This document shows positions 4,265 to 33,721 of a stretch of 64,000 nt of DNA, one piece after another. Both the position numbers and the translations under genes were made by a program. The notes under the pieces are model-generated. The model searched no databases, was not told where the DNA came from, and saw only the letters and a list, made by a program, of their open reading frames with translations. Position 1 is the stretch's first letter; the number at the start of each line of letters is the position of its first letter. Source of the stretch: Coleofasciculus sp. FACHB-T130 (GTDB lineage: Bacteria; Cyanobacteriota; Cyanobacteriia; Cyanobacteriales; FACHB-T130); contig NZ_JACJOG010000030.1 in the NCBI RefSeq assembly GCF_014695375.1, forward strand, positions 1-64,000, in the 5' to 3' direction.

Positions 4265-4513
4265 TCTTGCCTAAATGAGCGGAAATTTATTGTCTGTATA
4301 ATTACTTACATTAGCAGGCAATCTGGAACGTTCCAGCAGTTTCTTGCAATCGGCATTTTTGTGGATGTTAACAGAAAATTTGGGCGATCGCTCTTAGGGA
4401 AGCCATAACGAGGCAGGAGATATAGCGATCGCCCTCGATTTGAATAACTTTACAAATATGCATTGCTTTGAATACACCTGTAAAAATTAGAATGCTACCC
4501 TTCAAAAACGTAG

Positions 4514-9253: not shown

Positions 9254-9260
9254 GGAATTG

Positions 9261-10376
9261 CTAATTGCTAGGAATTCCCCTTTGCTCCTCTGTGGTGATA
9301 ACGACTTCCTTCGCAAAGGGGTTGTGAAAAAACGATCCGGTTTGAGGTGGCAGCATGGGATCGAGGACAATTTCTGCAAGACTTTTCCCGACACCTGTTA
9401 GGGGAATTGCTAGAATCACTCCTAACAATCCCCCCAATTTCGCTCCGAGTAGGAGAGAGACAAAGATAATCACTGGCGATAGACCTGTCAAATTGCCCAT
9501 AATTCGGGGTGCGACCAAATTATCTTTTATCTGCTGAAGTGCGATCGCTATGGCTAAGACTTGCAGCGCCTGAAACCAATTGATAAACGCTACCACAATC
9601 ACAACCGTGGCAATTCCTAAAGTTGCTCCGATAAAGGGAATGATTTCCATCAACCCAATAAAAACCGCAAATACTAGGAAGAATGGCACGTGCAATGCCC
9701 AAAATGCGAGGGAAAGAGTCGTTGCCATAAACACACCCAATAACACCTGACCTGACACAAATCGCTGCAAATTTCGTTGCAATGATTCTGTCAAACCATC
9801 TTTAATTTTGGATGAGAAAATACTCGTCAGTCCCCGCCAAACTCGCTCACCATCAATGAGCATATAAAAAGAAATAACGAGAATTAGAATTAAGTCAAAA
9901 AACCAGTTAAAAGTGCCTAATACTAAGCCAAAACCTCTGGTAGCGATCGCTTGGGCTTGCGCTTGTACTCGTGCCAACAACTCAGAAGCCAAAATTCGCA
10001 CGTCAAACGGTAAATTGTGTTCGGCACTCCAAGCTTGGAAGGCGGCTAATTGCTGTTGTCCAGACTCTAGGAGCGAAGGTAAATTTGTCACCAATTGCCG
10101 CCCCTGATTAAACACTGGCGGTACTACAGTCAGGCCAATGAGTACCAGAGTTAAGCCTGCTATTAAATAAACTAAGATTGCTGCCACACTCCGGGGCAAG
10201 AAAGTTTGCAAAACGGCAACAGCATAGTTAAGAAAAAATGCAATCAGTCCGGCGGTCAGCAAAATGCTAATCAACTCACCCACATATCTCAGAGCCAAAA
10301 TCGTCACCCAACCGCTTGTTAGAACGAGCAGCCAAGTGATTAGAAACTGTTGGAGGGGTGAAAAGGCACGATTCAT
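9261..10376 (-). CDS. AI-2E family transporter (UPF0118)
   Basis: 371 residues, with hydrophobic segments spread as in the family: a pair near the N-terminus, one near 60-90, then a cluster from about 150 to 340. Conserved-looking stretches include FIGLMEIIPFIGATLG and QQIKDNLVAPRIMG, the hallmark region before the last helices. The family contains the E. coli TqsA exporter of autoinducer-2 as well as ion antiporters, so the substrate is unknown. It is tail-to-tail with the hybrid kinase (7-base gap). Confidence 0.85.
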   Translation of the reverse strand: MNRAFSPLQQFLITWLLVLTSGWVTILALRYVGELISILLTAGLIAFFLNYAVAVLQTFLPRSVAAILVYLIAGLTLVLIGLTVVPPVFNQGRQLVTNLPSLLESGQQQLAAFQAWSAEHNLPFDVRILASELLARVQAQAQAIATRGFGLVLGTFNWFFDLILILVISFYMLIDGERVWRGLTSIFSSKIKDGLTESLQRNLQRFVSGQVLLGVFMATTLSLAFWALHVPFFLVFAVFIGLMEIIPFIGATLGIATVVIVVAFINWFQALQVLAIAIALQQIKDNLVAPRIMGNLTGLSPVIIFVSLLLGAKLGGLLGVILAIPLTGVGKSLAEIVLDPMLPPQTGSFFHNPFAKEVVITTEEQRGIPSN

Positions 10377-10755
10377 CTTTGCTCTATCTCAATGGGGGAG
10401 AGTGGGTCGTAGGACTCCTGCTAAAGTTATTTAGAAAAAACTTTGCTTTCAAGACAGCAGCCGCTCTTTGGGGGCAAGCTGTGAAAGTCTTTGCAGAGGA
10501 TCTTAAACAATTTAACATCCATCTGCGAGGCAACGATAGAGAGGACGGGGTTTGCGCGTGAAGCGATATACTATTTTGTTGTTTGTCTGCAACAGATAAA
10601 CTTCTGCCTCCTTTTTTGTAGCCTTAGCAAAGGGATGCGCTCTTCACAGCGAAACCGAGATCCCGGACTTCGGAAGAGTTGCCCTAGGATCTCGCTTTCG
10701 CTGGCATCTCACAACTCAAATCGGATTGCTATAGCAGTTCTTTTAAGACCTAACG
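10377..10755. other. Intergenic region holding one copy of a dispersed repeat
   Basis: About 380 bases between two leftward genes. Apart from the 33-base repeat at 10666-10698 and a following TTGCTATAGCA stretch I see no gene. An open frame at 10491-10907 runs into the 3' end of the kinase gene and looks like noise. Confidence 0.45.
10666..10698. repeat. 33-base dispersed repeat, copy 1
   Basis: Identical over 33 bases to 15127-15159, beginning GACTTCGGAAGAGTTGCC. Both copies lie in intergenic DNA and are followed within about 30 bases by a GGAYTGCTAT motif, so they look like members of one small repeat family. Confidence 0.8.
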
Positions 10756-12663
10756 CTAGTTGTGAGTTTTTATCGGCAATGCGATCGCAAACTCTGTTCC
10801 TTGTCCAAACTCCGAAATTACCTCGATTTTCCCCTTGTGCTTTTCAACGATTTGGTAGCAGATGGAGAGTCCTAAGCCAGTGCCTTTACCTACCGGCTTC
10901 GTTGTGAAGAAGGGATTAAACAGCTTGTCTTTAATTTCCAAAGGAATTCCAAAACCATTATCTCGAATTCTTACCCGAATATAGTTAGACTTGAACCGTT
11001 CCGTGTGAATCAGAATCTGCGATTTTTCGGTTATTATTTTTTTATTTTGGATGGGAAAGCCCTTGTTTATTGCTTCCGCTTCTTCCTGTCTCTCATTTTT
11101 GCTCTTGGTGTCTTCCAAAGCATCAATTGCATTACTGATAATATTCATAAATACCTGGTTGAGTTGAGCTGGGTAACACTCAACGAGAGGCAAATCTTCA
11201 TACTCTTTGATTACCTCAATTCCCCGCTTAAGGCGGTGATTGAGAATCAACAACGTGTTTTCTATCCCTTCATGGATATCGACTGGTTTCATCTCAGATT
11301 CATCTAGCCGGGAGAAGTTTCGCAAAGACAAAACAATTTGCCGAATACGTTCAGTGCCCATCTTCATAGAAGACAGGATTTTGGTAAAATCTTCCGTAAG
11401 GAAGTCCACGTCAATTGCTTCAATCTCGTGTTGAAGAAGAGGGGTAGGGTGAGGGTACTGCTGCCGATACAGATGTACTAAATTAAGCAGTTCTTGCGTA
11501 TAAACGTTAGCGTGTTCCAGATTACCGTAGATGAAATTGATGGGGTTATTAATTTCATGAGCGATACCTGCAACTAGCTCTCCCAAACTGGACATTTTTT
11601 CAGTTTGAATGAGTTGAGATTGGGTTTGTTGGAGTTCTTGAAGCGCTTGTGTCAATTCCTCGGTTCGTTGTTCTACTCGCTCCTCTAGTGTCTGACGAGC
11701 TAACTCTAGTTCGTGGGTATATTCTCCTACCCACTGCACTAGGCAATTTAGAGAGGTTGCTAATGACCCCACTTCATCCTCAGTGGTAACTGGACTGCGG
11801 AGGTCAAAATTAGATTCTTGAGTGATGGCTCTGGCAACTTGAGTGACTGCTTCGAGGGGACGAGCGATCGCACGAGCCGTAATAATCGCCAACGCCACCG
11901 CGATCGCCACTGACAGCAGCATACTCCCAACAATAATTTGCAGCCTTAGTGTCTCAGCTTGCCCAAGCTTGTTTTTTGCTTCTATCTGTTGAGATTCTGC
12001 TGTCTCTTTCAGCCTAGTTAAACTCTCTGCTAATCGGTCGAAACTAACAATGATATTAGTCGCTGTTTTGCTTGTGATAGAATTCAAGAACTTTTGCTGC
12101 GCTACCGAAATTTCTTCTGTTTTCAAGTTAGCGGGATCAATCTGCCGCCAGAGAAACTTAATTAACTGAGTGTAGGATTCGGTATTGGTTTCATAACCAT
12201 TCAATAAATTCTTTAAATCTGTAGGCTTTGTTGCTAAATTATCGGGGTAGCTGTCTATAAAAGAGTGGAATTCTGATAATATTGTCTGGCTCCGACTAAC
12301 ACTTGTAAAAAACTTAGCAGTTTCGTAGTCAAACCAAATTGGTTCTCCTAGTACAATAACCAGCCGCTGTGGGTGCGCTCGCAGTTCACCAACAGCATTT
12401 TCTAAGTTACTGAGGAGATTTTGCTGCTTCTCGGCAATTATTAGCTGCTTTTGAGCCTTCTTTTCGTAATAGTCTCCGCTAATTAGACCAATCGTTGTTC
12501 CTAAAACCGCTATGCCGATAGCCAAGGAATAACCGTAACCAATTTTTTTGGCTATACTCAAGCGCGGAATGAAGCGTCTTACCCAGTTTGTAGAAAATTT
12601 CAAGGTGTTCCCTTGGTTATCTAAGTTAGGCTTATCTGCAACCCCATGTCTTTTGAGATCCAT
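10756..12663 (-). CDS. Membrane sensor histidine kinase (TM-sensor-TM-HAMP-kinase)
   Basis: 635 residues. A basic N-terminus leads into TM1 (about 42-64). An extracytoplasmic, largely helical region (about 65-240) follows, then TM2 (about 243-265), a HAMP domain, a coiled coil, HisKA with H369 in GIAHEINNPINF and an HATPase with DNGFGIP and GTGLGLS. The HEINNP form of the H-box is common in cyanobacterial kinases without a fused receiver. No response regulator is adjacent. The gene follows, 68 bases downstream in the same direction, a PhnD-like lipoprotein gene. The likely arrangement is that the lipoprotein binds a ligand outside the membrane and passes the signal to this kinase; that is inference from position. 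Confidence 0.88.
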   Translation of the reverse strand: MDLKRHGVADKPNLDNQGNTLKFSTNWVRRFIPRLSIAKKIGYGYSLAIGIAVLGTTIGLISGDYYEKKAQKQLIIAEKQQNLLSNLENAVGELRAHPQRLVIVLGEPIWFDYETAKFFTSVSRSQTILSEFHSFIDSYPDNLATKPTDLKNLLNGYETNTESYTQLIKFLWRQIDPANLKTEEISVAQQKFLNSITSKTATNIIVSFDRLAESLTRLKETAESQQIEAKNKLGQAETLRLQIIVGSMLLSVAIAVALAIITARAIARPLEAVTQVARAITQESNFDLRSPVTTEDEVGSLATSLNCLVQWVGEYTHELELARQTLEERVEQRTEELTQALQELQQTQSQLIQTEKMSSLGELVAGIAHEINNPINFIYGNLEHANVYTQELLNLVHLYRQQYPHPTPLLQHEIEAIDVDFLTEDFTKILSSMKMGTERIRQIVLSLRNFSRLDESEMKPVDIHEGIENTLLILNHRLKRGIEVIKEYEDLPLVECYPAQLNQVFMNIISNAIDALEDTKSKNERQEEAEAINKGFPIQNKKIITEKSQILIHTERFKSNYIRVRIRDNGFGIPLEIKDKLFNPFFTTKPVGKGTGLGLSICYQIVEKHKGKIEVISEFGQGTEFAIALPIKTHN

Positions 12664-12731
12664 TGAGGAAAGTCTAGAGGTTTAAAAAAACAAGAAAAAT
12701 ATCCAAAAATAGTCAAATCAAGCGATTAAAG

Positions 12732-13622
12732 CTATTGAACAAAACTACCTTGTCCAATAGCTTTATAGACCTCGCGAATCATATTGTAATCAGCATCATT
12801 CGCCGGAACTATCTGAGAGCCTTTGTACTTACCTTCCTCGACGGATAAAAGACTTTGAATTAGTTTGTCCTGATTTTTAATTGCGCGATCTCTCATCTCT
12901 TTAACGAATTCAGGAGCGAGCTTACTACTAGCAACAAATAAGTCCTTGGGGAGAAGCGGCCCTTTCACGATTAGCGGTAACTCACTCTCAGATAAGCCTT
13001 CATCTTGGAGGAATTTCTCATACTTAACAGTAGACCCTCCCCAAGCATCAACCTCACCTTTTTTCAAGGCGGGTAGTCCCTGACTTCCTAACATGAGGAT
13101 TTTTAGGTCAGATTTAGGATCTAATCCAGCATCAATCAAAAACTTGGTGGGACCCAGATAACCGCTGGTTGAGCCTAACTGCCACATGGCAATTTTTTTA
13201 CCTTTCAACTGTGCTACTGACTCGATCTTGCTGTTAGCAGAGACACAGATAGCTGCATGGTAGTTTGGTCGAGTGATGCCGATGACAGGAACCGCATTTG
13301 TCCTAGCACGCATGATTACATATTCCGAGGGGCCTGTGAGAACAAGATCCAGCTGATCTGACTGTAAGGCGGCGGCGGCGGCGATGTATGTTTCAACGGG
13401 AACAAACTCAAGTTTCGTTTCCAGTACCTCCTCTAGTGCCGTCCGCAATCCCCCATAATTACGCTGCAACTCTTCAAGGCTCGGAATCTCGGTTACTGTA
13501 AATCGGAGCTTTTCAGGGAAATTTCTGGCATTTGAAGGCGAATCTCTATCATTAGGGTTACTTGCTGCGGTACAGCTTGTGATTAATATTAGGGAATACC
13601 AAAAAAAATGGCGTCGCCGCAT
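12732..13622 (-). CDS. PhnD-like substrate-binding lipoprotein
   Basis: 296 residues from the ATG at 13622; a TTG 15 bases earlier is the alternative. The N-terminus MRRRHFFWYSLILITSC is a lipoprotein signal with the lipid-bearing Cys at 17. The body matches the phosphate/phosphonate-binding PhnD/TtgT fold: QLKGKKIAMWQLGSTSGYLG in the middle, GEVDAWGG, then LPKDLFVAS. No permease or ATPase gene is adjacent. The downstream neighbour is a sensor kinase, so a sensory rather than transport role is likely. The ligand cannot be read from the sequence. Confidence 0.82.
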   Translation of the reverse strand: MRRRHFFWYSLILITSCTAASNPNDRDSPSNARNFPEKLRFTVTEIPSLEELQRNYGGLRTALEEVLETKLEFVPVETYIAAAAALQSDQLDLVLTGPSEYVIMRARTNAVPVIGITRPNYHAAICVSANSKIESVAQLKGKKIAMWQLGSTSGYLGPTKFLIDAGLDPKSDLKILMLGSQGLPALKKGEVDAWGGSTVKYEKFLQDEGLSESELPLIVKGPLLPKDLFVASSKLAPEFVKEMRDRAIKNQDKLIQSLLSVEEGKYKGSQIVPANDADYNMIREVYKAIGQGSFVQ

Positions 13623-13639
13623 AATTTTTGCCAACAAAC

Positions 13640-13992
13640 AAATAGAAATAATTCTAACTAATTAAAATTAGATTTTGGTTAAGAATAGGTCGTAAGCTAT
13701 TTAATTCTAATCGTAGAATAAAAAATTAACTTTAAAAGTCTTATAAAAAGGTTTGTCGTTATTAAAGTTGCAGGCATAAGCGGCTGATTTTCTTGCAGAA
13801 CGCGAGATTAAAGCCGCCCATATTTCTATAAGTATTAACCTTGGCGATAGCGAAGCGCCGACCTGTCGGTTCGCGCTTGTCTTACTGTAGGCGACGATAC
13901 GACTTTATGGCGAGAGGAATGCGATCGCTTACACGAACCTCGTGTAGCGACTCCATCGCACGTTGTATTCCTTTGCAATTTCTAAAAGCCGA
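13640..13992. other. Intergenic region with a diverged dispersed repeat
   Basis: About 350 bases. The stretch 13851-13878 (GCGCCGACCTGTCGGTTCGCG) resembles repeats at 22841-22875 and 51848-51879, which share CGCTGACTTGTCA-TTCGC. No gene is seen. Confidence 0.4.
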
Positions 13993-14316
13993 TTACCACA
14001 ACGCTGGCACCGGATCTTCTTCGGGTGGTAGGTCTACCTGCGATGGGGTATAAGGATTGCTGCGGGTTGCAGGTTGTTGTTGTTGTTGTTGCTGTTGCGT
14101 TACTGGAGGGGTTGTTGCCGTAGGGGTTACGGTTGGAACTGGGCTAACCGTAGTGGTCGGTGTAGGAGAGGGCGATGGTGTTGTCGTTTGACTACCCGCA
14201 GGAACTACTTGCCCCGCACTCTCACTACCGAGGGGGAAGCGCACGCCCACGATACCGCCTAAAAAAATAGCAAGAGCTACTACGAAAATCACGCCTGGGA
14301 TTATTTGATCGCGCAT
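13993..14316 (-). CDS. Small membrane-anchored Pro/Thr-rich protein
   Basis: 107 residues. A single hydrophobic segment (about 6-27, IIPGVIFVVALAIFLGGIVG) is followed by a low-complexity extracytoplasmic tail rich in Pro, Thr, Ser and Val, containing a run of eight Gln and ending PPEEDPVPALW. I do not recognise the family. Its composition suggests a surface or wall-spanning linker. The poly-Gln is encoded by a CAA-type tract, which may vary in length between strains. Confidence 0.6.
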   Translation of the reverse strand: MRDQIIPGVIFVVALAIFLGGIVGVRFPLGSESAGQVVPAGSQTTTPSPSPTPTTTVSPVPTVTPTATTPPVTQQQQQQQQPATRSNPYTPSQVDLPPEEDPVPALW

Positions 14317-14575
14317 CGCTCAGCGGTAAAGGCTTACTTTAATTCATCTTAGTCGAGTCAAAAACCCTAAGCTGTTCGCTTAAGGAAATAACTTTGTGTA
14401 TTTTCACGAATTTTCGGTTAGTGCCACTCACCCCACCGACGGATTTCCAGCCTGCTCCGTGAAAAAGCTCTGTAGCGGCGGGGGTTTCCCCATCCATGCT
14501 CACAGGCTTTGCGAAGAAAGATGGTTATCTAAACAGCATAGACTTTAGTCTGTGACCATCCTAGTAAGGTTAAAT

Positions 14576-15013
14576 CTAGGGTAAATACTTTTGTACCACG
14601 CTCCAGCCGGTTAACGAAACCCAAGCTAATCCTACGAATAACACTAGATTGGTTGCAATATGAACCGAACGCGCCCAAGCTCGGTTGGGATTAATCAGAA
14701 TTGCGCTTCCCGCTGAGAGCAACACTAATACAACCACTGCCCACCCGGCAATCCAGTGCGCCGAATGAGCGAGGCTGCCATAATGACCTAACGTGCCGAC
14801 AATCCCAATGGCGAGCAGCAGCAAGACGAGAGCCACCAGAATTGCGCCAGTGGCGTAGTGAAAAAGACGCAACCATCGCGGTTGCGAACTTCTTTGCTGA
14901 CGAGCCGCAAACATCCAACTGCCAGTAACTCCCAGCAATAGGTAGGCTAATATCGACAAGCCCATCGACCATGCAGCAATTTTCCAGAGCCAGAGAAAAG
15001 AAGGTAGATTCAC
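14576..15013 (-). CDS. DUF4079 family membrane protein
   Basis: 145 residues with a GTG start (GTG-AAT-CTA). There are four hydrophobic segments (about 8-32, 50-72, 83-105, 117-140). Histidines lie in or near the helices (FHYATGA, GTLGHYGSLAHSAHW, SVHIATNLV), and the C-terminus is SLTGWSVVQKYLP. The pattern fits DUF4079, a cyanobacterial and plastid membrane family of unknown function related in layout to cytochrome b561-like proteins. Heme binding by the spaced histidines is a guess. Confidence 0.72.
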   Translation of the reverse strand: MNLPSFLWLWKIAAWSMGLSILAYLLLGVTGSWMFAARQQRSSQPRWLRLFHYATGAILVALVLLLLAIGIVGTLGHYGSLAHSAHWIAGWAVVVLVLLSAGSAILINPNRAWARSVHIATNLVLFVGLAWVSLTGWSVVQKYLP

Positions 15014-15331
15014 TCGTTACTTACTTACATTCAGCTACAGCAGCATCTACTTTTCATCTTAAGCTGTTCGCTTGGTGCAATAGCAATCCTACTTTTAGCG
15101 GAGAGATACCAGCCCTTTAGCTCCCCGACTTCGGAAGAGTTGCCCTAGGATCTCGCTTTTACGAATCATAATAGGACTGCTAGATCGCTGAGAAAAAAGA
15201 ATTTGTCTATCTACGTATACGAGAATTAACCAGTGAATTTCCCTAAAAGCTAATCGCTAATCTCTAAAAATCCTATAAAAAAGAGCTGTCGCTTATGACA
15301 ACCCTGAAATTACTGAATTTTTTCAGCAAAA
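15014..15331. other. Intergenic region with a repeat element
   Basis: About 320 bases. From 15076 to 15182 there is an element bounded by AGCAATCCTA and TAGGACTGCT, which are inverted and match at 9 of 10 positions; it contains repeat copy 2. No gene is seen. Confidence 0.4.
15127..15159. repeat. 33-base dispersed repeat, copy 2
   Basis: Exact match to 10666-10698. It lies inside an element of about 100 bases with short imperfect inverted ends (15076-15182), so it may be part of a non-autonomous miniature element. Confidence 0.8.
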
Positions 15332-15727
15332 CTAGCCAATATAAGCGGTTGTTAAAGATTCTACGGTTTCTAAATTTCTCTTTTTCTGGATTTCAAGCTT
15401 CCGGGTATTATCGTTTATTATCTTTTTTTCCTCATCGTGTAGGTCGATTGTATTTGACTCAGAATCATTGCCTTCACTGATACACAAGCGATCGCAGGGA
15501 ATGGTATCTGAGAGGATGGCACTTGCCATCATCCCTGTATGAATTTCCAGATTCGCTTCGGGCATTGTTTCAAACACTAAGCGTTGTCCTGGAAAGACAA
15601 CGCGCTCAAAGTACCAGTTCGGAATGTTAGAGATCCGAGCAATTTGAATGTGGCTTGTAGCATTAACGTAGCAGCACAGAATGCGATCGCTGTTACCAGA
15701 AGGAAGGGGATCGAGTATTTGAGCCAT
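15332..15727 (-). CDS. DUF1830 family protein
   Basis: 131 residues from the ATG at 15727, where the family usually begins (MAQILDPLP); a GTG eight codons earlier is possible. The core CCYVNATSHIQIARISNIP, then NWYFERVVFPGQRLVFE and LEIHTGMMASAI, is characteristic of DUF1830, a small cyanobacterial family of unknown function. The tail after about residue 100 is hydrophilic and of lower complexity, longer than I would expect, and may be variable. Confidence 0.82.
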   Translation of the reverse strand: MAQILDPLPSGNSDRILCCYVNATSHIQIARISNIPNWYFERVVFPGQRLVFETMPEANLEIHTGMMASAILSDTIPCDRLCISEGNDSESNTIDLHDEEKKIINDNTRKLEIQKKRNLETVESLTTAYIG

Positions 15728-15751
15728 AACTGCTGAGGAGCTTTGCGCCAC

Positions 15752-16383
15752 TGCCTAGGATTACCATAACTAAGCTAACATTCGGCGATCCCGGCTTGTT
15801 GTAAACACGAATACCAACTGAATATTCTGGTGAGATATCCCCCCAAAGTTAGAGGAAAAAATTCCCGTTTTAGTAATCTTTGCTACTGGCGATTGTAACG
15901 GCAATTTTCCGTGCTTAAGCTTCCGACTCGCACTATGACTCCCGGTAAAAATACCTCCCTCACGTCTCATGCCAGCATTGCCAGATGAAAATGCAAGCGA
16001 AGCCAAGGTTTTTCCAGGATAAGCAATGAATTGGTGCTGAATTTTGACTTTTTGTTGAGAACCGGCTGCCACTAGAGATCGATTTTGCAGTGTTCGGCTT
16101 TCTTTTTTGGCTCCAGAACCAAAATCAGGGCAAGACTGAGGATAGTCAATGTTATCGTAAAGTTATATAAAGACCTTTCAGAATCATTTCATTTATAGAT
16201 ACAGAGGTGCTGCTGTCGCCAGTAAGTCCTGCGGGTCAATGGCGGATTCACATCTAGTCGCTAAAGATACCAAACATGGCTCGAATCCTGAGAGCAAGTC
16301 ATAGCCAGAATAATTTTTGAGAAAGCGATCGCATTTGTCGCTTTCCATCTCAGTAGTAGTAAATTTAGATACAAAAAAACACG
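15752..16383. other. Long intergenic region, no convincing gene
   Basis: About 630 bases upstream of the radical SAM gene. An open frame of 100 codons on the minus strand (15770-16072) has no recognisable motif and no good ribosome binding site. A hairpin GAAAGCGA/TCGCTTTC sits at 16321-16345, just before the radical SAM gene, and could be regulatory or simply a HIP1-derived palindrome. Confidence 0.45.
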
Positions 16384-17955
16384 ATGAATAATCGAATTCT
16401 CTACGTCCGCCTCCCCTGCAACCCGATTTTTCCCATCGGAGTGGTTTACTTATCCGATCACGTACACAAGCAATTCCCAGAAGTCGAACAGCGGATCTTT
16501 GACTTAGGAACCGTGCCGCCTCTAGATTTCACTGGGGCGTTGGATACGTGTGTTGATGAATTCAAACCCACATTGCTGGTATTTTCCTGGCGCGATATTC
16601 AGATTTATGCGCCCGTGGGCGGCAGAGGTGGCAACCCACTCCAGCACGCCTTTGAGTTTTACTACGCCAAAAATCCGCTGCTGAAATTGCGCGGGGCACT
16701 GGGAGGGTTGCGCGTCACCACGGCATACTACACCGAACTGTGGCGCAACCTGGGATTAATCAAACGGGGACTCAAACGCGCTCAAAAATATCATCCAGAA
16801 GCCAAAGCCGTTGTCGGTGGTGGTGCTGTGAGCGTATTTTACGAACAACTCGGTAAGAGTCTGCCATCCGGGACAGTTGTTTCGGTGGGTGAAGGCGAAG
16901 CGCTGCTGGAGAAAATGCTGCGAGGGCAAGATTTTCGGGATGAACGATGCTATGTGGTGGGAGAGACAACGCCACGCGATCGCATGATCCACGAACGTCC
17001 CACGAATATCGAAAAAACTGCCTGCAATTACGACTACATCGAAACGATTTGGCCTGAGTTTCAATATTATCTGCAAGACGAAGATTTCTACGTCGGCGTG
17101 CAGACAAAGCGGGGTTGTCCCCACAACTGTTGTTACTGCATTTATACAGTGATTGAGGGCAAGCAGGTACGGATTAACCCAGCCGATGAAGTTGTCGCAG
17201 AGATGCAACAACTTTATAACCGAGGGATTCGCAACTTCTGGTTTACCGATGCTCAGTTTATCCCAGCTCGGAAATTTATCGATGACGCCGTTGAGCTATT
17301 GCAGAAAATCCTCGATGCTGGGATGAAAGATATCCATTGGGCAGCTTATATTCGGGCAGACAATTTAACGCCTGAGTTATGCGACTTGATGGCAAAAACC
17401 GGCATGAACTACTTTGAAATCGGCATTACCAGCGGTTCCCAAGAACTTGTGCGGAAGATGCGGATGGGCTATAACCTGCGAACCGTCTTAGAAAATTGCC
17501 GCGACTTAAAAGCAGCAGGTTTCAACGATTTAGTTTCCGTCAATTACTCATTTAATGTAATCGACGAAACGCATGAAACGATTCGGCAAACCATTGCCTA
17601 CCACCGGGAACTAGAGCGGATCTTTGGTGCAGATAAAGTCGAACCGGCAATCTTCTTTATTGGCTTACAACCTCATACTCATTTAGAAGAATATGCCTTC
17701 GAGCAGAATGTCCTTAAACCCGGATACAATCCCATGAGCATTATGCCGTGGACAGCCAAAAAATTACTTTGGAATCCAGAACCCCTCGGCTCATTCTTTG
17801 GGGAAGTTTGCCTGCAAGCATGGCAGCAAAACCCCAACGATTTCGGGCGAGAAGTGATGAAAATTCTAGAGGAAAAACTTGGTTGTGCCGACTTAGAAGA
17901 AGCCCTTGCGGCACCGATTCAGCCAAAAGAAAAACACCTAGTTACGGTATCTTAG
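16384..17955 (+). CDS. B12-binding-type radical SAM protein (photosystem II high-light acclimation type)
   Basis: 523 residues. The N-terminal part (about 1-200) has a B12-binding-like Rossmann layout with AVVGGGAVSVFYEQLG and SVGEGEALLEKML. The radical SAM core follows, with the cluster motif C245-x3-C249-x2-C252 in RGCPHNCCYCIY. NFWFTDAQFIP and YFEIGITSGSQELVRKM are typical later core segments. It resembles a cyanobacteria-specific group annotated as photosystem II high-light acclimation radical SAM proteins; I name that group from memory. The reaction is unknown. The DICT gene 99 bases downstream could be co-transcribed. Confidence 0.82.
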   Translation: MNNRILYVRLPCNPIFPIGVVYLSDHVHKQFPEVEQRIFDLGTVPPLDFTGALDTCVDEFKPTLLVFSWRDIQIYAPVGGRGGNPLQHAFEFYYAKNPLLKLRGALGGLRVTTAYYTELWRNLGLIKRGLKRAQKYHPEAKAVVGGGAVSVFYEQLGKSLPSGTVVSVGEGEALLEKMLRGQDFRDERCYVVGETTPRDRMIHERPTNIEKTACNYDYIETIWPEFQYYLQDEDFYVGVQTKRGCPHNCCYCIYTVIEGKQVRINPADEVVAEMQQLYNRGIRNFWFTDAQFIPARKFIDDAVELLQKILDAGMKDIHWAAYIRADNLTPELCDLMAKTGMNYFEIGITSGSQELVRKMRMGYNLRTVLENCRDLKAAGFNDLVSVNYSFNVIDETHETIRQTIAYHRELERIFGADKVEPAIFFIGLQPHTHLEEYAFEQNVLKPGYNPMSIMPWTAKKLLWNPEPLGSFFGEVCLQAWQQNPNDFGREVMKILEEKLGCADLEEALAAPIQPKEKHLVTVS

Positions 17956-25206: not shown

Positions 25207-26652
25207 ATGTGGGGAGAAAAATTGATACTGGGATTTCGACTTTCTATGAGTAGATTGAAAACGCTTAGTTTGGTTGGCGCGATCGCGATTATAGGGAGCG
25301 GCATGGAGTTAAAAGCGATCGCTGCCCGGTTAACAAATTGGCGATTTGACCCAGCGCTGAATCAGTTAGAAATCACTCTGGATGAGGGAACAACGCCGCG
25401 TTATTTTCTTCTGGCTCAACCGTCTCGGATTGTTCTGGATTTACCCAATACTCAAGTGGGAATGGTGGAAACTCAACAAAGTTACTCTGGCCCAATCCGC
25501 CAAATTCGAGTCTCTCAGTTCGAGGCTGGCATTACCCGAATAGTGCTGGATCTCGCACCAGAGGTAGTTTTATCCCCCCAACAAGTGCAATTGCAAGTAG
25601 AACCTGGGAATCGCTGGGTATTGCGTCCCCTGATTGCTAACGTTCTCGCTCCAGAAGCAGTGCCTCCCAGCAGGAGCGGGGTTTCTCCGTCCCTGCCTCC
25701 CCCTATCTTCCCAGAGAACCCAACGCCGGGTGTCGTGAGCGTGCCGTCTCTGACTAACTCAAGTACGCTACCCAATTTAGCGCCGCCAACGGTTCCTCCA
25801 GGGAGAATTGCGACGAATAATCCTGTGTTGGTGAGCGTACCTGCTCTTTCTGGCGCGATCGCTACAGCACCACCAGTAACCGTGAGACAGCCTCAGTCTT
25901 CCTCTGCCACCAGAGTGGTTGAATTTGGTCAACCGTTGCCGATGGAGGAAAATTCCTCCCAAGTGTCTGCAAGGAGAACCAGAGTAGCCCCAGTCCCTTC
26001 TCTAGAAGCGGGTGCGTCCGTACCCATGTCTATACCTGCCACACCGACAATCGCCGCACCGAGAACCACCGCTTCTCCAATGGTTGTCGTGCCGCCCCTA
26101 CCTAAGACGGCGACGGTTGTGCCCGATCCTTCCAGCTCCACATCGGCACCGATACAAGCGCCAACGGCATCTCTAAATCCAGACATTCTGCTGCCTTCTG
26201 GCACTCCGCTGAGCCTGCGTTATCCGGGCGACAAGGTTTTAACACTGCGAGATGGTGTCTCGCGCCAGGAAGTGTTGCTGCTAGAGGAAGAAATACGCGA
26301 TCGCACTGGTAAACTTATCGCCCCAGTTGGTACGCAGGTGATTGGACGCTTTGAGATCGACCGACGCGGCAGTCGCTTTATTACCCAAGCGATTAGCCTG
26401 GGTGGACGCAATTTTCCCCTTCTCGCCCAATCAGACTCCCTAGACGGCAACCGTCAAGTTTCACAGAACCGAGTTGTCCGGAATTCTGCCATTGGCGCTT
26501 TAGCCTTAATTCTATTAGGAGGCTTTTCAGGCGTCGGTTTGTTGGGAGGCGCTGCCGCCGGTGCTGCCACCACCTATCTGACAGCTCCTCAAACCGCTAT
26601 TATTCAACCGAATCAAATACTGCAAGTTCAGCTCAGCGAAGATTGGCGGTAA
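25207..26652 (+). CDS. AMIN domain envelope protein with VirB10-like C-terminus
   Basis: 481 residues. A signal-like hydrophobic stretch (LSLVGAIAIIGSGMELKAIA, about 21-38) is followed by an AMIN domain (about 40-130, LTNWRFDPALNQLEITL; RIVLDLPNTQV), a peptidoglycan-directed periplasmic module. A Pro/Ser/Thr-rich linker runs from about 150 to 325. The C-terminal part (PSGTPLSLRYPGDKV, then LIAPVGTQVIGRFEIDRRG, then a Gly-rich hydrophobic stretch at about 425-455) has the layout of VirB10/TrbI domains, but I make that comparison only loosely. An ATG 13 codons in (25246) is an alternative start. Confidence 0.72.
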   Translation: MWGEKLILGFRLSMSRLKTLSLVGAIAIIGSGMELKAIAARLTNWRFDPALNQLEITLDEGTTPRYFLLAQPSRIVLDLPNTQVGMVETQQSYSGPIRQIRVSQFEAGITRIVLDLAPEVVLSPQQVQLQVEPGNRWVLRPLIANVLAPEAVPPSRSGVSPSLPPPIFPENPTPGVVSVPSLTNSSTLPNLAPPTVPPGRIATNNPVLVSVPALSGAIATAPPVTVRQPQSSSATRVVEFGQPLPMEENSSQVSARRTRVAPVPSLEAGASVPMSIPATPTIAAPRTTASPMVVVPPLPKTATVVPDPSSSTSAPIQAPTASLNPDILLPSGTPLSLRYPGDKVLTLRDGVSRQEVLLLEEEIRDRTGKLIAPVGTQVIGRFEIDRRGSRFITQAISLGGRNFPLLAQSDSLDGNRQVSQNRVVRNSAIGALALILLGGFSGVGLLGGAAAGAATTYLTAPQTAIIQPNQILQVQLSEDWR

Positions 26653-28514: not shown

Positions 28515-29345
28515 GTGAAATCACAAACGTCGCTACATCTGGGCAAAACCTTAAAAAGCTCCCAGTTTCAAACTCTGATTGCCGATAGTCTCACCGTTTT
28601 TTGGGGGGATTGGTTAGATTTACGTGTCCGAATTGTGCAGGTGGCGGCGTCTGGGCTAATATCGCCTCTGATTTACATTCTGGCGTTTGGATTGGGGTTG
28701 GGTAGCTCTATCAAGCCTGGTGTGGGGATTAGCGGTAATTACAATAACTATCTGGAATTCATTTTGCCGGGGATGGTAGCGCTATCGTCGATGGTGATTA
28801 GTTTCACCGGCACGACATTTTCCATCTGTGGCGATCGCTTGTTCTCGAAAACTTTTGAAGAAATGCTGCTGGTACCAGTGCATCCTCTCGCTTTGCACTT
28901 AGGAAAAATGCTAGCTGGTGTGGTGCGGGGATTAATGACGGCGGGTTCGGTGATTTTAGTGGCGGTACTCTTTACTGGCAAGGTTTGGAGTTTTTTGAAC
29001 CCTTTGTTTCTACTGCTGGTCGTGCTGAATTGCGCGGTGTTTGCTGGGTTGGGTGTGATTGTCGGTTTAAGCGTGCGATCGCTCGAAGCGGTTGGTCTTT
29101 ACAATAATTTTGTAATCATCCCCATGTCATTTTTAGGGGCAACATTCTTCGAGCCTGCAACTCTCCCGGCTGCCCTCAAAGTAGTCGTCTATCTGTTGCC
29201 TCTGACTTATACCAGTATTGGTTTACGCGCCGCAGCTTACTTGCCAATGTCGCAGTTTCCCTGGTACTCGGTGCCGATTTTAGCGGTGATGGCGATCGCG
29301 CTTTCCTTCGTTGGTGCTTATCAATTCGCTCATCAACAAGATTAA
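28515..29345 (+). CDS. ABC-2 type transport permease
   Basis: 276 residues with a GTG start. Six hydrophobic segments (about 45-65, 85-105, 130-155, 165-188, 195-215, 245-268) in the ABC-2 layout, with the typical central MLLVPVHPLALHLGKMLAG and C-terminal SFLGATFFEPATLP loops. It resembles exporters for drugs or polysaccharide precursors; no ATPase gene is adjacent. Its final 45 bases recur in direct orientation at 30648-30692 with only three synonymous changes, beyond the peptidase gene. This marks an insertion or recombination at the 3' end. Confidence 0.85.
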   Translation: MKSQTSLHLGKTLKSSQFQTLIADSLTVFWGDWLDLRVRIVQVAASGLISPLIYILAFGLGLGSSIKPGVGISGNYNNYLEFILPGMVALSSMVISFTGTTFSICGDRLFSKTFEEMLLVPVHPLALHLGKMLAGVVRGLMTAGSVILVAVLFTGKVWSFLNPLFLLLVVLNCAVFAGLGVIVGLSVRSLEAVGLYNNFVIIPMSFLGATFFEPATLPAALKVVVYLLPLTYTSIGLRAAAYLPMSQFPWYSVPILAVMAIALSFVGAYQFAHQQD

Positions 29346-29349
29346 TTGA

Positions 29350-29383
29350 TTCAGGAAGGGTGGGCACTATCCACCTTCCTGAA
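29350..29383. terminator. Bidirectional terminator between permease and peptidase genes
   Basis: TTCAGGAAGG and CCTTCCTGAA form a perfect 10-base-pair outer stem, with an inner TGG/CCA pair offset by one bulged G and a GCACTAT loop. It starts 5 bases after the permease stop and ends 5 bases before the convergent peptidase stop, so it can serve both. Confidence 0.7.
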
Positions 29384-29387
29384 CTAA

Positions 29388-30566
29388 TCAGCTAACGATA
29401 ATTGCGTCGAAAAGTTTGAGAAGTTTCAAGTTCTCAAAAGCCTGGAAATCGCAGTATTTTTCCAGCTCCTGCTTGCTTTCCGGGAAAAAGATACCAAGCC
29501 CCGAAAAATTTTCATATTCTGGAATAGGACGAAATAATGTACCATTTTGTTTTACTTTATAAATGATTGAATTATTTAAAAAATCAACGAATTCATTGTA
29601 TCTATTTTGATTTGCGCCTGACTGATTGGTGATAGTTTTAAAAAATGAGACAACATCGACAAACCGTTCGCCCATATACTTATAAGTTGTCAGGTTGCTC
29701 AAATTTATATTTTTTATATTAGCTGCCAGAACTGCATCAATAAGCGGATTAATTTTTGCAGATAGTTGCGTGATAGCACGATTATTGATAGCGGTATAGC
29801 TATGGTACATATCGCTAGATTCAAACTCCATAATCTTTTCCGCTAGCTGTCCTCCACTAATTTCTGGTTGACGCCCCAAAAAATTAAATAATTGCTCGTA
29901 ATAATAATTGGGAACACCTAGCAGTAATTGGGAAGAAAGAGTATATTTCGCTGTATCTCGAAAAGTATAGTTGGCTTCAATAGTTCCTTTATTGCAATTT
30001 TGAAAGAAAACTAACTCCACCCGCTTGCCTACTTGCTGATTAAAATTTGCGAGCAGACCGCTTAATTTTTGGATATTCATCCACTGAGTTTTTAAATTCA
30101 AGCCTGGTTCAGGGTGTTCATCTGGGCTAATTTCATCTAAACGACCCCCATGTCCTAAGAATACAATTGCCCATTTTTTAGCTTGAAATTGCGACTTAGC
30201 CCAATTAAGGTATTCAGAAAAAGCTTCTTCACTCGCGCTGTTTGCTGTATTTAAGCTTTGAGTAGAAATATTTCCTTTAGTAAGGATGTTTCTTGAAATT
30301 TTTTTAGCTCCGCTAAAATCACATTGTATCGCTACAAGAATATTGTCGCTTTTCACACTTTTGGCAAGCATATTCATAATAGGAGTGCCAAACTTTGAAA
30401 GGTCGTTATCATAAGGCATTCAATATAAAAAAATCCATTCATAGAGTCGCTTATTGCTCATACTTGTAGCAATAATATCTGGCTGATTTTGACTGAGTAA
30501 AATCAAGTTTCCTAAAAAGGATGCACTACCTAACGCCGAATACTGAAGCAACTTTCTGCGCTTCAT
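29388..30566 (-). pseudogene. Clostripain-like (C11) peptidase split by an in-frame TGA
   Basis: The intact part (29388-30419, 343 codons) begins MPYDNDLSKFGTPIMNML. It has catalytic-type His in IVFLGHGG (H90) and Cys in VFFQNCNKG (C142), the C11/caspase-fold pattern. Directly upstream in the same frame, 48 codons from the ATG at 30566 encode MKRRKLLQYSALGSASFLGN, a twin-arginine-like or lipoprotein-like export signal, ending EWIFLY. A single TGA at 30420-30422 separates the two; TGG there would give the family-like YWMPYDNDLS. It is therefore either a nonsense mutation or a split product: TGA is followed at once by ATG, so translational restart could make a leaderless cytosolic enzyme. The gene lies between two copies of the permease 3' end. 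Confidence 0.75.
30420..30422 (-). other. In-frame TGA interrupting the peptidase gene
   Basis: On the minus strand the codons read TTA-TAT-TGA-ATG-CCT. The frame is open for 48 codons before and 343 after, so one base explains the break. Confidence 0.85.
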
Positions 30567-30647
30567 AGAGCTAGTAACTCAGTGATTATGGATGAATGCT
30601 TCGATGTTAACCCTTGGCAAAGCAAACTCGCAAGAGCAAGCGACACC

Positions 30648-30692
30648 CTTTCCTTCGTCGGTGCTTATCAATTTGCTCATCAGCAAGATTAA
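30648..30692 (+). repeat. Displaced second copy of the ABC-2 permease 3' end
   Basis: 45 bases match 29301-29345 at 42 positions and in the same orientation. Both encode LSFVGAYQFAHQQD and stop. The three differences (GTT/GTC, TTC/TTT, CAA/CAG) are all synonymous. Upstream of it the similarity ends abruptly. Confidence 0.9.
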
Positions 30693-30763
30693 ATTTTGAA
30701 CTGCCGAAATGCTAAGGACGCTCATAAGAGGATTTAATTGCGATCGCTCTGTTGACTCAGCCT

Positions 30764-31459
30764 CTACCTCAACCGAGTCGCTACCTGCACTCGGCTAGTG
30801 GAGTGCCATCTTTGGTCTCTCCAGATATCAAAAACATCATTGTTTCGACTATCCACTCGATGACATCCCATCCAATGATTGTCATCTCTGGCTCGTAAAA
30901 ATGATGATGCCCTGATCCGAATAACATCGTGCCATGTATTATCACTGCTCCATATTTGGAACCAATGATGATTGACACTATCGACTTGGCAGAATCTCAT
31001 CCAATAGTTGTCATCTTTACCTTGTAAGATTAAGGCTTTCTGAGCAACAATTGAACCATTTTCAATTCCAGCTTTAACAGATTTAATTTCCGCAAAAACC
31101 GCATTAACGGTGTCTTGAGCAGTCTTAGATTCTTTGTGAGCATATTCAGCTATTTTTTCGGCTTGTTTTACTGCATTCTCAAAGCGTTCATTGGTAGCCT
31201 GAAGTTCTGCTTTTGTCACTATAGGCTCTGCTTTAATAGCTTGAAGCTCATCTTTCAGAGTTTTAATTTCTGCCTTACAATTTTGGATTTCTGTTTTAGC
31301 AGCCTGAAGTTCTTTTTTCAGATTTTCCTGAGACGCCTGAAGCTCCTTTAAAATCTGTAGTTCTGCCTGAAACTGTTCGCGTGTTCGTTCTAGTTCTGCG
31401 ATCGCTCTTTCATAACACCCAAGCGGCGTTTTCCAGTCTCCAGCACCAGCTTTACTCAT
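30764..31459 (-). CDS. Coiled-coil protein with two C-terminal Trp-rich repeats
   Basis: 231 residues with a ribosome binding site (GAGG) before the ATG. Residues about 20-130 form a long coiled coil rich in Glu, Lys and Gln. The C-terminus contains two related units of about 40 residues (149-190 and 192-231), each with DDNxWM, then VDSxN, then a W-rich (F/W)xIW segment. I do not recognise the repeat; it may bind a ligand or protein at the end of a stalk. It is 19 bases downstream of the 31479-32414 gene in the same direction, so they are probably one operon. Confidence 0.65.
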   Translation of the reverse strand: MSKAGAGDWKTPLGCYERAIAELERTREQFQAELQILKELQASQENLKKELQAAKTEIQNCKAEIKTLKDELQAIKAEPIVTKAELQATNERFENAVKQAEKIAEYAHKESKTAQDTVNAVFAEIKSVKAGIENGSIVAQKALILQGKDDNYWMRFCQVDSVNHHWFQIWSSDNTWHDVIRIRASSFLRARDDNHWMGCHRVDSRNNDVFDIWRDQRWHSTSRVQVATRLR

Positions 31460-31478: not shown

Positions 31479-32414
31479 TTATGTATCCTCTTTATCTGTC
31501 AAAAATCGCTGCGACTTCTCAGGCTTTAGCAAAAGAGGTTCGGTAGAATTATAAGTCTTGATTGTTCCGCGCCAAAACTCACAAAGTACGCCATATTTAA
31601 GCCAATCTTGAATAGCTATCCTTTTCAACTCCGGAGATTTTTTCACTAAAGCAGCCATCATCGCTGCATTGTGTTGAAGTTGCCCATAAATCTTCAGTAC
31701 ATCGTCAATAGAACTTTTCTCCTTCAACTTGCTCAATTCATAGCATTCGCTTAGTTCATAAAGTTCAATATCCGAAAGCCTAGCACCCGGCTTCAATCCA
31801 ATTTTGAGCCTCTGTCTACATTTATCAAAAGGATTCGGCAAAGCGTGAGCTAAATGCTTCTTTAACTCATTCCGAATCTGTTCAAGTTTCCCGTCTATCG
31901 CTTCGTCTATCTTATCTACAAGCTGATTAGCATCTTTAAATAATTTTTCTTCTAGCAAATTAATTTCCGCCAACATTGGTGCGATTAACTTGTTATTAAT
32001 TTCTCCGGGAGTAAATTGACTACCTAACTTTAAGGCTTCCATTACTACTAAAGAAATTTGGTTGATTCGATTTTCTAAATAGTTGTCAGCTATTCTGATA
32101 GTTTCTCTTACATCTCTAAGCGCTGCTACTCGCACTTGATTAATGTTTTCTAAAGCATCCTTTGCTTTTTCATCACTCTGGTTGAGTAGAGATTCGATAT
32201 CACCTATCGTCTTAGTTTCTAATTCCTCCATTTCATTTTTTGCTTGTTTGATTCGGTTTTGAGCTATGTAATCAAGCTTGTCAGCTAAAGGATATAGTTT
32301 TTCATCAAACAATTGACCTATTTCTTTCCCTGCCGATTTTACGAAATCCTGCGAAACGTTTTTAGAAGCACGTTCTAATTTTTTAATAAAATCTCCAAAG
32401 AGCCATCCCAGCAT
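31479..32414 (-). CDS. Long helical protein, unknown function
   Basis: 311 residues, almost entirely predicted helix. The N-terminus MLGWLFGDFIKKLERA is amphipathic and could attach to membrane. Residues about 50-190 have coiled-coil character (IKQAKNEMEELETKTIGDIE; NYLENRINQISLVVMEALKL). The C-terminal third (PNPFDKCRQRLKIGLKPGAR onward) is more globular. I recognise no family. It is the first gene of a leftward pair with the Trp-repeat protein, and the disrupted peptidase follows, so this accessory block may have moved together. Confidence 0.6.
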   Translation of the reverse strand: MLGWLFGDFIKKLERASKNVSQDFVKSAGKEIGQLFDEKLYPLADKLDYIAQNRIKQAKNEMEELETKTIGDIESLLNQSDEKAKDALENINQVRVAALRDVRETIRIADNYLENRINQISLVVMEALKLGSQFTPGEINNKLIAPMLAEINLLEEKLFKDANQLVDKIDEAIDGKLEQIRNELKKHLAHALPNPFDKCRQRLKIGLKPGARLSDIELYELSECYELSKLKEKSSIDDVLKIYGQLQHNAAMMAALVKKSPELKRIAIQDWLKYGVLCEFWRGTIKTYNSTEPLLLKPEKSQRFLTDKEDT

Positions 32415-32629: not shown

Positions 32630-33721
32630 CTACACATTAAACCGGAACAGCATTACATCGCCTTCTTTGACAATATATTCCTTCCCTTCACTACGGACTA
32701 AGCCTTTTTCCTTCGCAGCATTCATGGAACCAGTTGTTACTAAATCTTGGTAGGCGACTGTCTCCGCCCGAATAAAACCGCGCTCAAAATCAGAGTGGAT
32801 GACGCCTGCTGCTTGGGGTGCTGTCATTCCGGCTTGAATCGTCCAAGCGCGAGTTTCTTTAGGACCAGTTGTAAAGTAGGTACGCAAGCCTAAAAGTTCG
32901 TAAGTTGCGCGAATCAGAGATTTTAATCCACCTTCTTCCACACCAAGAGAACCCAGAAACTCAGCTTTATCTTCTTCTGGTAATTCGACTAATTCCGCTT
33001 CCACTTGGGCAGAAACAATTACGACTTGGGCATTTTCTTGGGTCGCAATTTCTCGCACTTGTTCTACATATTTATTGCCCGTTGCCAAATCATCCTCAGA
33101 GACATTGGCAGCATAAATAATTGGTTTACCTGTGAGCAATCCTAATCCTTTGAGCGCTTCAGCTTCTTCTTCATTTAAGTTAGCCCGACGCGCTGGTTTG
33201 CCTTCATTTAATAAAGCGCTCAATTTTTCTAAAGCAGCGAGTTCAATCTGTCCTTCTTTGCTGGTACGGGCAGCTTTGCGGGTGCGCTCAATACGTCGCT
33301 CTACTTGAGATAAATCTGCTAAAGCAAGCTCCAAATTAATAATGTCAATATCTCGCGCTGGGTCAACAGATCCAGCAACGTGGATAATGTCATCATTCTC
33401 GAAACAGCGCACTACATGAACAATGGCATCAACTTCCCGAATGTGGGACAAAAATTGATTACCCAGTCCTTCCCCCTGACTAGCACCTTTCACTAAACCA
33501 GCAATATCCACAAACTCAACCCGCGTCGGGATAATTTGCGCCGAACTGGAAATATTAGCCAGGGCGTTTAACCGTTCATCTGGCACCGACACGACACCGA
33601 CATTGGGTTCGATGGTGCAAAAAGGGAAATTGGCAGCTTCAGCCTTGGCATTGGCAACCAAGGCGTTAAATAAGGTAGATTTTCCGACGTTGGGAAGTCC
33701 GACAATTCCGGCTCTAAGCAT
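32630..33721 (-). CDS. ychF: YchF/OLA1 family redox-regulated ATPase
   Basis: 363 residues, the usual full length. [14 protein letters not shown] is the P-loop, [20 protein letters not shown] the G3 region, and the C-terminal TGS-like domain ends in [32 protein letters not shown] closes the family signature. YchF proteins bind ATP in preference to GTP and are linked to ribosome binding and oxidative stress. Single gene, with a terminator hairpin at 32504-32536. The Pro-rich ORF upstream is separated by 33 bases. Confidence 0.97.

What the first reader, a model, noticed from the sequence alone, without database searches (positions are those of the whole stretch)
29301..30692. Peptidase gene bracketed by two direct copies of a permease 3' end
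The last 45 bases of the ABC-2 permease (29301-29345) recur in direct orientation at 30648-30692, with 42 of 45 identical. The three differences are all synonymous. Exactly one gene, the inverted peptidase with a shared terminator, lies between them. Upstream similarity stops abruptly at both copies. Synonymous-only divergence means both copies were once under coding selection, so one came from a related strain's permease. This is what insertion of a cassette at a gene's 3' end, or homologous replacement with an incoming allele plus cargo, would leave. It also resembles attL/attR of an element that restores its target gene.
Basis: partly seen in the sequence, partly recalled or inferred. Interest (0 to 1): 0.78.

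Follow-up and report, generated by a model that had tools for sequence, protein, structure and literature searches.

The report
Gene insert scarred by duplicated gene tail
In this cyanobacterium a peptidase gene sits between two copies of the end of a neighbouring transporter gene, a scar of foreign DNA being added there, and related genomes carry similar scars at a few other genes, some of which start at a very common short palindrome whose purpose is still unknown.

Summary
The repeat is real: 29301-29345 and 30648-30692, 42 of 45 identical, all differences synonymous. Two genomes of a sister genus (G002, G005) also lack the peptidase but carry extra tail copies around other cargo. So this is not one peptidase cassette but a spot that gains genes repeatedly. 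Scans found further loci of the same build: acs in G001/G002/G005 with a TPR gene as cargo, and ndhN in a Nostoc with a ParDE toxin-antitoxin pair as cargo. At 3 of 5 distinct loci the tail copy starts at a HIP1 palindrome GCGATCGC (background 2%). No recombinase ORF lies in the window's insert. Best reading: incoming related DNA anchors by homology in a gene and its other end joins illegitimately, sometimes at HIP1, inside the same gene's 3' end. The gene stays whole, cargo is gained, and the old 3' end is left downstream as a scar. A fresh 800-kb scan found no further case, so the HIP1 link rests on few loci.

The parts
28515..29345 (+). ABC-2 type permease, the anchor gene
   Evidence: PF01061 E 5e-19; matches in 37 of 60 related genomes, own genome and weak relatives included
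29292..29299 (.). HIP1 palindrome GCGATCGC in the permease 3' end; left edge of the repeat in the sister genus
   Evidence: at this exact place in 72 of 110 permease tails, some contigs counted twice
29301..29345 (+). proximal tail copy (permease 3' end)
29345..29388 (.). hairpin between permease and peptidase 3' ends, possible bidirectional terminator
   Evidence: -23.5 kcal/mol, z -4.04; no T-run seen by eye
29388..30419 (-). clostripain-family (C11) peptidase, 343 aa, the cargo
   Evidence: PF03415 E 3.3e-18; once in this genome; no match in G001, G002, G004, G005
30420..30422 (-). in-frame stop codon between leader and mature peptidase
30423..30566 (-). peptidase leader segment cut off by that stop
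30638..30647 (.). AAGCGACACC, possibly a decayed HIP1 at the joint
   Evidence: the same place reads AAGCGATCGC(A/G) in G002/G005; inference
30648..30692 (+). distal tail copy, read as the displaced native permease end
   Evidence: 42/45 to the proximal copy; 44/45 to the single tail of G001
30693..30763 (.). native downstream sequence, directly fused to the permease in G001
30764..31459 (-). 231-aa coiled-coil gene (module A), exchanged between genera
   Evidence: dS 0.22 to G002 against 0.7-1.3 in five of six neighbours and 0.38 in ychF
31479..32414 (-). 311-aa gene (module A)
   Evidence: dS 0.23 to G002
32630..33721 (-). YchF-type GTPase gene, right limit of the variable spot
   Evidence: PF06071 E 3.7e-39; present after the spot in W, G001, G002, G005

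Best explanation
The repeat is a recombination scar at a spot where genes are gained repeatedly. DNA from a related strain, carrying the permease 3' part plus other downstream DNA, entered the cell. One end recombined by homology inside the permease. The other end, beyond the peptidase, was joined illegitimately at or just after a HIP1 palindrome 46-54 bp before the end of the recipient's permease. The result is an intact permease ending in the incoming tail, then the peptidase, then the recipient's own displaced tail and native downstream sequence. Each such event would leave one more tail, so older tails would tend to lie further downstream; once present, tails can serve as homology for further duplication or loss. 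Shown: the two copies, the empty relative, other cargo between extra tails at the same spot, inter-genus exchange of the module that starts at the HIP1-tail, and further loci of the same build. Inferred: the order of events, the donor, natural transformation as the route, and HIP1 as the joint.
For: Empty relative: around the locus G001 aligns to the window on both sides with only the 1.3 kb between the tails missing. G002/G005 hold extra tails around a 142-aa gene and other modules. In G002 the block from the HIP1-tail to the 311-aa gene is at dS 0.22-0.26 from both window and G001, while its neighbours are at 0.69-1.30 (ychF 0.38-0.41). All four extra copies (window distal, G002, two in G005) are nearest to G001's tail. 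Window-G001 dS of permease and module A is within the ordinary range (8, 6 and 9 of 53 genes as high or higher). Second locus: acs, whose last 173 bp from HIP1 to the stop recur around a TPR gene in G001, G002 and G005; acs is at dS 0.25-0.38 between the genera, while the gene before it is only 79% identical between G002 and G000 or G001. In G002 three further acs tails are 91, 81 and 84% like the first, in order of distance. Third: Nostoc sp. CHAB 5844 (L057), ndhN with a ParDE pair between tails starting inside HIP1; its nearest held relative L088 has one tail. HIP1 at the left edge in 3 of 5 distinct loci, background 0.021, P 9e-5; without the permease locus that raised the idea, 2 of 4, P 0.0026. 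PF03772 competence protein in 6 of 6 family genomes. HIP1 is dense here (94 in this window against 1.1 expected).
Against: The window's own distal copy lacks an intact HIP1, and the edge window used in the count (-9 to +6) was chosen after the window case at -9 had been seen. Of 11 alignment gaps between W/G001 and G002/G005, the 9 outside the permease locus have no HIP1 within 15 bases of the edge, judged by eye. The 800 kb fetched as a fresh test gave no case at all. Two of the five loci (G005:C75 gene at 106461, G004:C68 gene at 82615) have no exact HIP1 at the edge, and one of the three further acs tails in G002 starts 18 bp after it. The predicted donor tract in the window's permease is only suggestive: divergence from G001 is higher in the 3' half (p = 0.007 for halves chosen after looking; 0.07 with a free breakpoint). 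At acs the window genome is not an empty site but has a TPR remnant after acs. PF03772 also rings in E. coli, so it does not prove competence.
Confidence: 0.6

Rival explanations
1. Circles made of cargo plus one tail, excised elsewhere by recombination between tails, integrate by a single homologous crossover in the permease tail; an integrase-free cassette that needs no HIP1.
For: Gives tail-cargo-tail directly; a tandem duplication of tail plus TPR gene in G005 suggests that tails do recombine.
Against: Does not explain why the left edge lies at HIP1 at three unrelated genes, nor the long imported block beyond the distal tail in G002.
Confidence: 0.15
2. The two-copy state is ancestral and G001 lost the peptidase by recombination between the direct repeats.
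For: 45-bp repeats can delete; G001's tail could be a hybrid of the two copies (2 and 1 differences).
Against: If the distal copy had been non-coding since the split, about 5 to 11 differences from G001 are expected and 1 is seen, P between 0.0003 and 0.03 depending on the rate used (the highest rate there came from an ungapped comparison that overstates divergence).
Confidence: 0.1
3. A site-specific element (tyrosine or integron integrase) uses the permease 3' end as attachment site and restores it; the integrase acted in trans or is lost.
For: In G199 another C11 peptidase lies near copies of a prfA 3' end, two integrase genes and toxin-antitoxin-like genes, so such cargo can travel with an integrase.
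Against: No recombinase ORF in the window's insert; only a broken integron-integrase fragment found in the window's genome; permease, acs and ndhN tails are unrelated sequences; extra copies decay.
Confidence: 0.1
4. The distal tail is what remains of a tandem duplicate of the permease.
For: Direct orientation, same gene.
Against: No further permease sequence found between the copies and one permease match in the genome; G001 has one copy; edges coincide at HIP1 in G002 and G005.
Confidence: 0.03

Closest known systems
Homology-facilitated illegitimate recombination (HFIR), reported in S. pneumoniae, A. baylyi, P. stutzeri and at low efficiency in E. coli (PMC3240628: title, start of abstract and passages seen)
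   Same: One end of incoming DNA joins by homology, the other without it, so foreign genes are gained beside an anchor.
   Different: Here the recipient's own gene end is kept as a duplicate downstream, and the joint falls at HIP1 in part of the cases. Not tested experimentally.
Sequential displacement arrays at T6SS effector loci of Vibrio (PMC5361080, passages seen)
   Same: Repeated insertion beside a constant gene, older remnants pushed downstream, HFIR proposed, compared with integrons by its authors.
   Different: There orphan immunity genes are displaced at effector loci; here short 3' tails of ordinary genes (permease, acs, ndhN) are displaced and cargo is miscellaneous.
HIP1-associated recombination in cyanobacteria (PMC4390886 and PMC9239245, passages seen; the 1990s originals not read)
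   Same: HIP1 has been linked to site-specific plasmid recombination and low-frequency illegitimate recombination.
   Different: Those are plasmid or cloned-sequence events and one inversion; here it marks edges of gene gains in natural genomes.
Variable segments attributed to illegitimate recombination assisted by homology in E. coli, S. aureus, S. pyogenes (PMC2884548, passages seen)
   Same: Small gene-sized differences between strains, some flanked by direct repeats.
   Different: Repeats there are mostly under 30 bp and not described, in the passages seen, as duplicated gene 3' ends.
Integron cassette arrays (recalled)
   Same: Cargo separated by repeats.
   Different: No integrase found at the locus; the repeat is the anchor gene's own 3' end and differs from locus to locus; attC looked for by eye only.

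Membership tests
HFIR product | One flank of the insert is allelic (homologous anchor) with a donor tract | tested here: inconclusive
   Permease 3' half more diverged from G001, permutation p 0.07; acs exchanged between genera as a whole
HFIR product | Other flank joined without long homology | tested here: met
   Similarity to G001 stops at the distal tail start
HFIR product | Empty relative with contiguous recipient sequence | tested here: met
   G001
Integrative element with att sites | Recombinase gene in or beside the element | tested here: not met
   Only the peptidase ORF of 90 aa or more lies in the insert; broken integron-integrase fragment elsewhere
Integrative element with att sites | Same element ends or core at different insertions | tested here: not met
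   Cargo and tails differ between permease, acs and ndhN loci
Integron cassette | attC site with each cassette | not tested
   Only judged by eye from the sequence; no attC model run
Diversity-generating retroelement | Adenine-specific differences between repeat copies and a reverse transcriptase | tested here: not met
   Only one of the three differences is at an A of the coding strand; no second ORF of 90 aa or more in the insert
Peptidase family C11 (clostripain) | Pfam Peptidase_C11 above its curated cut-off | tested here: met
   66.8 bits against 25.8; activity not testable

The most novel reading that the evidence does not exclude
HIP1 palindromes act as preferred joints in a general, integrase-free way by which cyanobacteria add genes at the 3' ends of their own genes: incoming DNA anchored by homology is closed at HIP1 (by cleavage at CGATCG or by short-homology pairing), so the anchor gene is kept whole and cargo accretes in layers.
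Probability: 0.25. Interest if true: 0.8.

Novelty: new variant of a known kind. Interest (0 to 1): 0.58.

Why it matters
HIP1 is hugely over-represented in many cyanobacteria and its significance is described as little known (PMC4390886, passages seen). Tail duplications give orientable scars of gene gain, so a role of HIP1 in joining DNA can be tested by counting edges in existing genomes and by transformation. It would also explain how cargo such as peptidases, TPR proteins and toxin-antitoxin pairs builds up beside housekeeping genes without mobile-element genes.

Tried and rejected
Looked for the tail as an attachment site in viral contigs: 0 matches to a degenerate 34-mer. Tested HIP1 at ordinary gaps: 0 of 9 outside the permease locus, by eye. 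Checked 22 other peptidase loci plus the window's own for flanking repeats: besides the window only L148 had them, and it lies in an integrase-bearing array. Considered ancestral two-copy state, att element, DGR, permease duplicate (see rivals). A donor-allele test on the permease was only suggestive. In the gene-tail scan (13 family stretches, 83 other loci) these rows were dropped: a repetitive gene family at G004:C68 103-110 kb, rows whose second copy was itself a gene end, alignments that filled the whole 400-base tail, and copies upstream or less than 150 bp away. Eleven rows remained (10 family, 1 other), which I count as nine joints at five genes; 6 of 9 joints have HIP1 at the edge. 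One search shows more rows under looser rules. One search, an earlier filter on 1.97 Mb, gave only the permease and acs loci plus one pair of paralogues. Paper searches on HFIR and microhomology served comparison only.

Full report
Observation. The 45-base repeat exists as described. The genome shows no third match at E <= 0.001. All three differences are synonymous. Between the copies lies one gene, a clostripain-family peptidase on the minus strand, whose leader is separated from the mature part by an in-frame stop. In 388 genomes of the order 39 have a match to it at E <= 0.001, but by my count of the rows only 24, the own genome included, match over most of its length (one in two pieces); it is patchy.

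The prediction of an empty site. In G001, the only other genome of the genus held, the permease tail runs directly into the sequence that follows 30692 in the window. Alignment blocks end at +0 and resume at +1303 of the window against -44 of G001. G001 has no peptidase match. The distal copy is 44/45 identical to G001's tail although the stretch after it differs at 10 of 71 columns, which fits a tail that was coding until recently; the window therefore looks like the filled state and G001 like the unfilled one. The opposite reading (loss in G001) is not excluded.

The same spot in a sister genus. G002 and G005 have no peptidase match but have a 142-aa gene after the permease, then a second tail; G005 has a third tail 204 bp on, followed by a 265-aa gene and a DUF488 gene. 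A search of the 6 family genomes found tail copies only at this locus: 2, 1, 2 and 3 in G000, G001, G002, G005 and none in G003 and G004. Among 109 permease loci scanned, some of them the same contig twice, a stretch of the tail of 54 aligned bases or more recurs downstream only in L034, L035 and L049, the last two being the same contig.

Exchange between genera. In G002 the block from the HIP1-tail to the 311-aa gene lies at dS 0.22-0.26 from both the window and G001, against 0.69-1.30 for five neighbouring genes and 0.38-0.41 for ychF. All four extra copies in window, G002 and G005 are closer to G001's tail (1, 2, 2, 5 differences) than to the permease tail of their own genome (3, 4, 6, 9). 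So the block that begins at the tail was itself moved between genera. Window-G001 divergence of permease and module A is ordinary: of 53 matched genes (of 90 ORFs) 8, 6 and 9 reach their dS values.

Other loci of the same build. A self-repeat scan showed that in G001 the last 173 bases of acs (acetyl-CoA synthetase, PF16177) recur 1.1 kb downstream around one TPR gene. The acs tail has 1, 2, 1, 1 and 4 matches in G000, G001, G003, G004 and G002 and 7 in G005, one of these a 26-base piece and one a 30-base match elsewhere. The full-length extra copies start at HIP1 (once with one base changed) and end at the stop codon; most of the extra copies share a following HIP1-rich stretch. Further copies in G002 are 91, 81 and 84% identical in order of distance. 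The window genome keeps a TPR remnant after acs, so it is not an empty site there. acs itself is at dS 0.25-0.38 between the two genera, while the gene before it is only 79% identical between G002 and G000 or G001. A scan of 1.58 Mb of family sequence (1,099 ORFs) and 1.20 Mb of other cyanobacterial loci (1,034 ORFs) gave five distinct genes with a 3' end repeated downstream: permease, acs, G005:C75 106461-107069, G004:C68 82615-85266, and ndhN (PF11909) in Nostoc sp. CHAB 5844 with a ParDE pair between its tails. Among held loci 27 hold ndhN; of the 14 nearest, printed, only L057 itself has a second tail longer than 20 bases within 4 kb downstream.

HIP1 at the edges. HIP1 occurs 94 times in the window against 1.1 expected. 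The left edge of the tail copy lies within -9 to +6 of a HIP1 at permease, acs and ndhN, and not at the other two: 3 of 5 loci, background 0.021, P 9e-5; leaving out the permease locus, which raised the idea, 2 of 4, P 0.0026. By joints it is 6 of 9. Against this: 0 of 9 ordinary alignment gaps have HIP1 within 15 bases of the edge by eye, the window's own distal copy has no intact HIP1, the edge window was set after seeing the window case, and 800 kb of G329 and G196, fetched after the prediction was written down, gave no tail duplication at all, so the fresh test said nothing.

Mechanism. The pattern fits homologous anchoring at one end and illegitimate joining at the other. That class of event is known (PMC3240628) and has been proposed for stacked immunity genes in Vibrio (PMC5361080). 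HIP1 has earlier been tied to plasmid recombination and illegitimate recombination, with its role left open (PMC4390886, PMC9239245). What is added here is a set of natural scars in which the anchor gene's own 3' end is duplicated, cargo varies, and HIP1 marks the edge in part of the cases. I searched the paper library for HIP1 with recombination, breakpoints and related words and, from the listings and the passages seen, found no report of such scars; subscription papers are mostly not held. The family has a PF03772 competence protein in 6 of 6 genomes, but so has E. coli among the controls, so DNA uptake is plausible and not shown.

Verdict. Observation confirmed. Interpretation partly right: insertion with an incoming gene end, yes; an att element, no support. 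The peptidase itself is ordinary and possibly inactive. The interest lies in the repeated build and the possible role of HIP1. Checking changed facts of detail only, so the odds stand.

Noticed in passing
L242 (G199:C1:4475000-4494000), 3500-17200: Array with two near-identical integrase genes (one matches integron integrase TIGR02249 at E 3.5e-136, the other Phage_integrase), three copies of a prfA 3' end, several gene pairs that look like toxin-antitoxin by eye, and another C11 peptidase bracketed by ~44-bp repeats.
   Followed up: partly
G005:C75 1-8500 and G005:C80: Two different acs 3' ends in G005; on C75 a chain of acs tails with two TPR-type genes and a 1246-aa gene.
   Followed up: partly
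L243 (G000:C8:50403-50819): Broken integron-integrase fragment with a stop in the window's own genome.
   Followed up: no
window 30420-30422: In-frame stop between leader and mature peptidase; possible pseudogene or a form started at 30419.
   Followed up: partly
window 25207-26652 against G001: AMIN-domain gene differs from G001 by two gaps of about 400-500 bp.
   Followed up: no
G002 (L034 6763-8551): Two copies of the 231-aa coiled-coil gene in tandem, one g1-like (87%) and one more distant (62%).
   Followed up: partly
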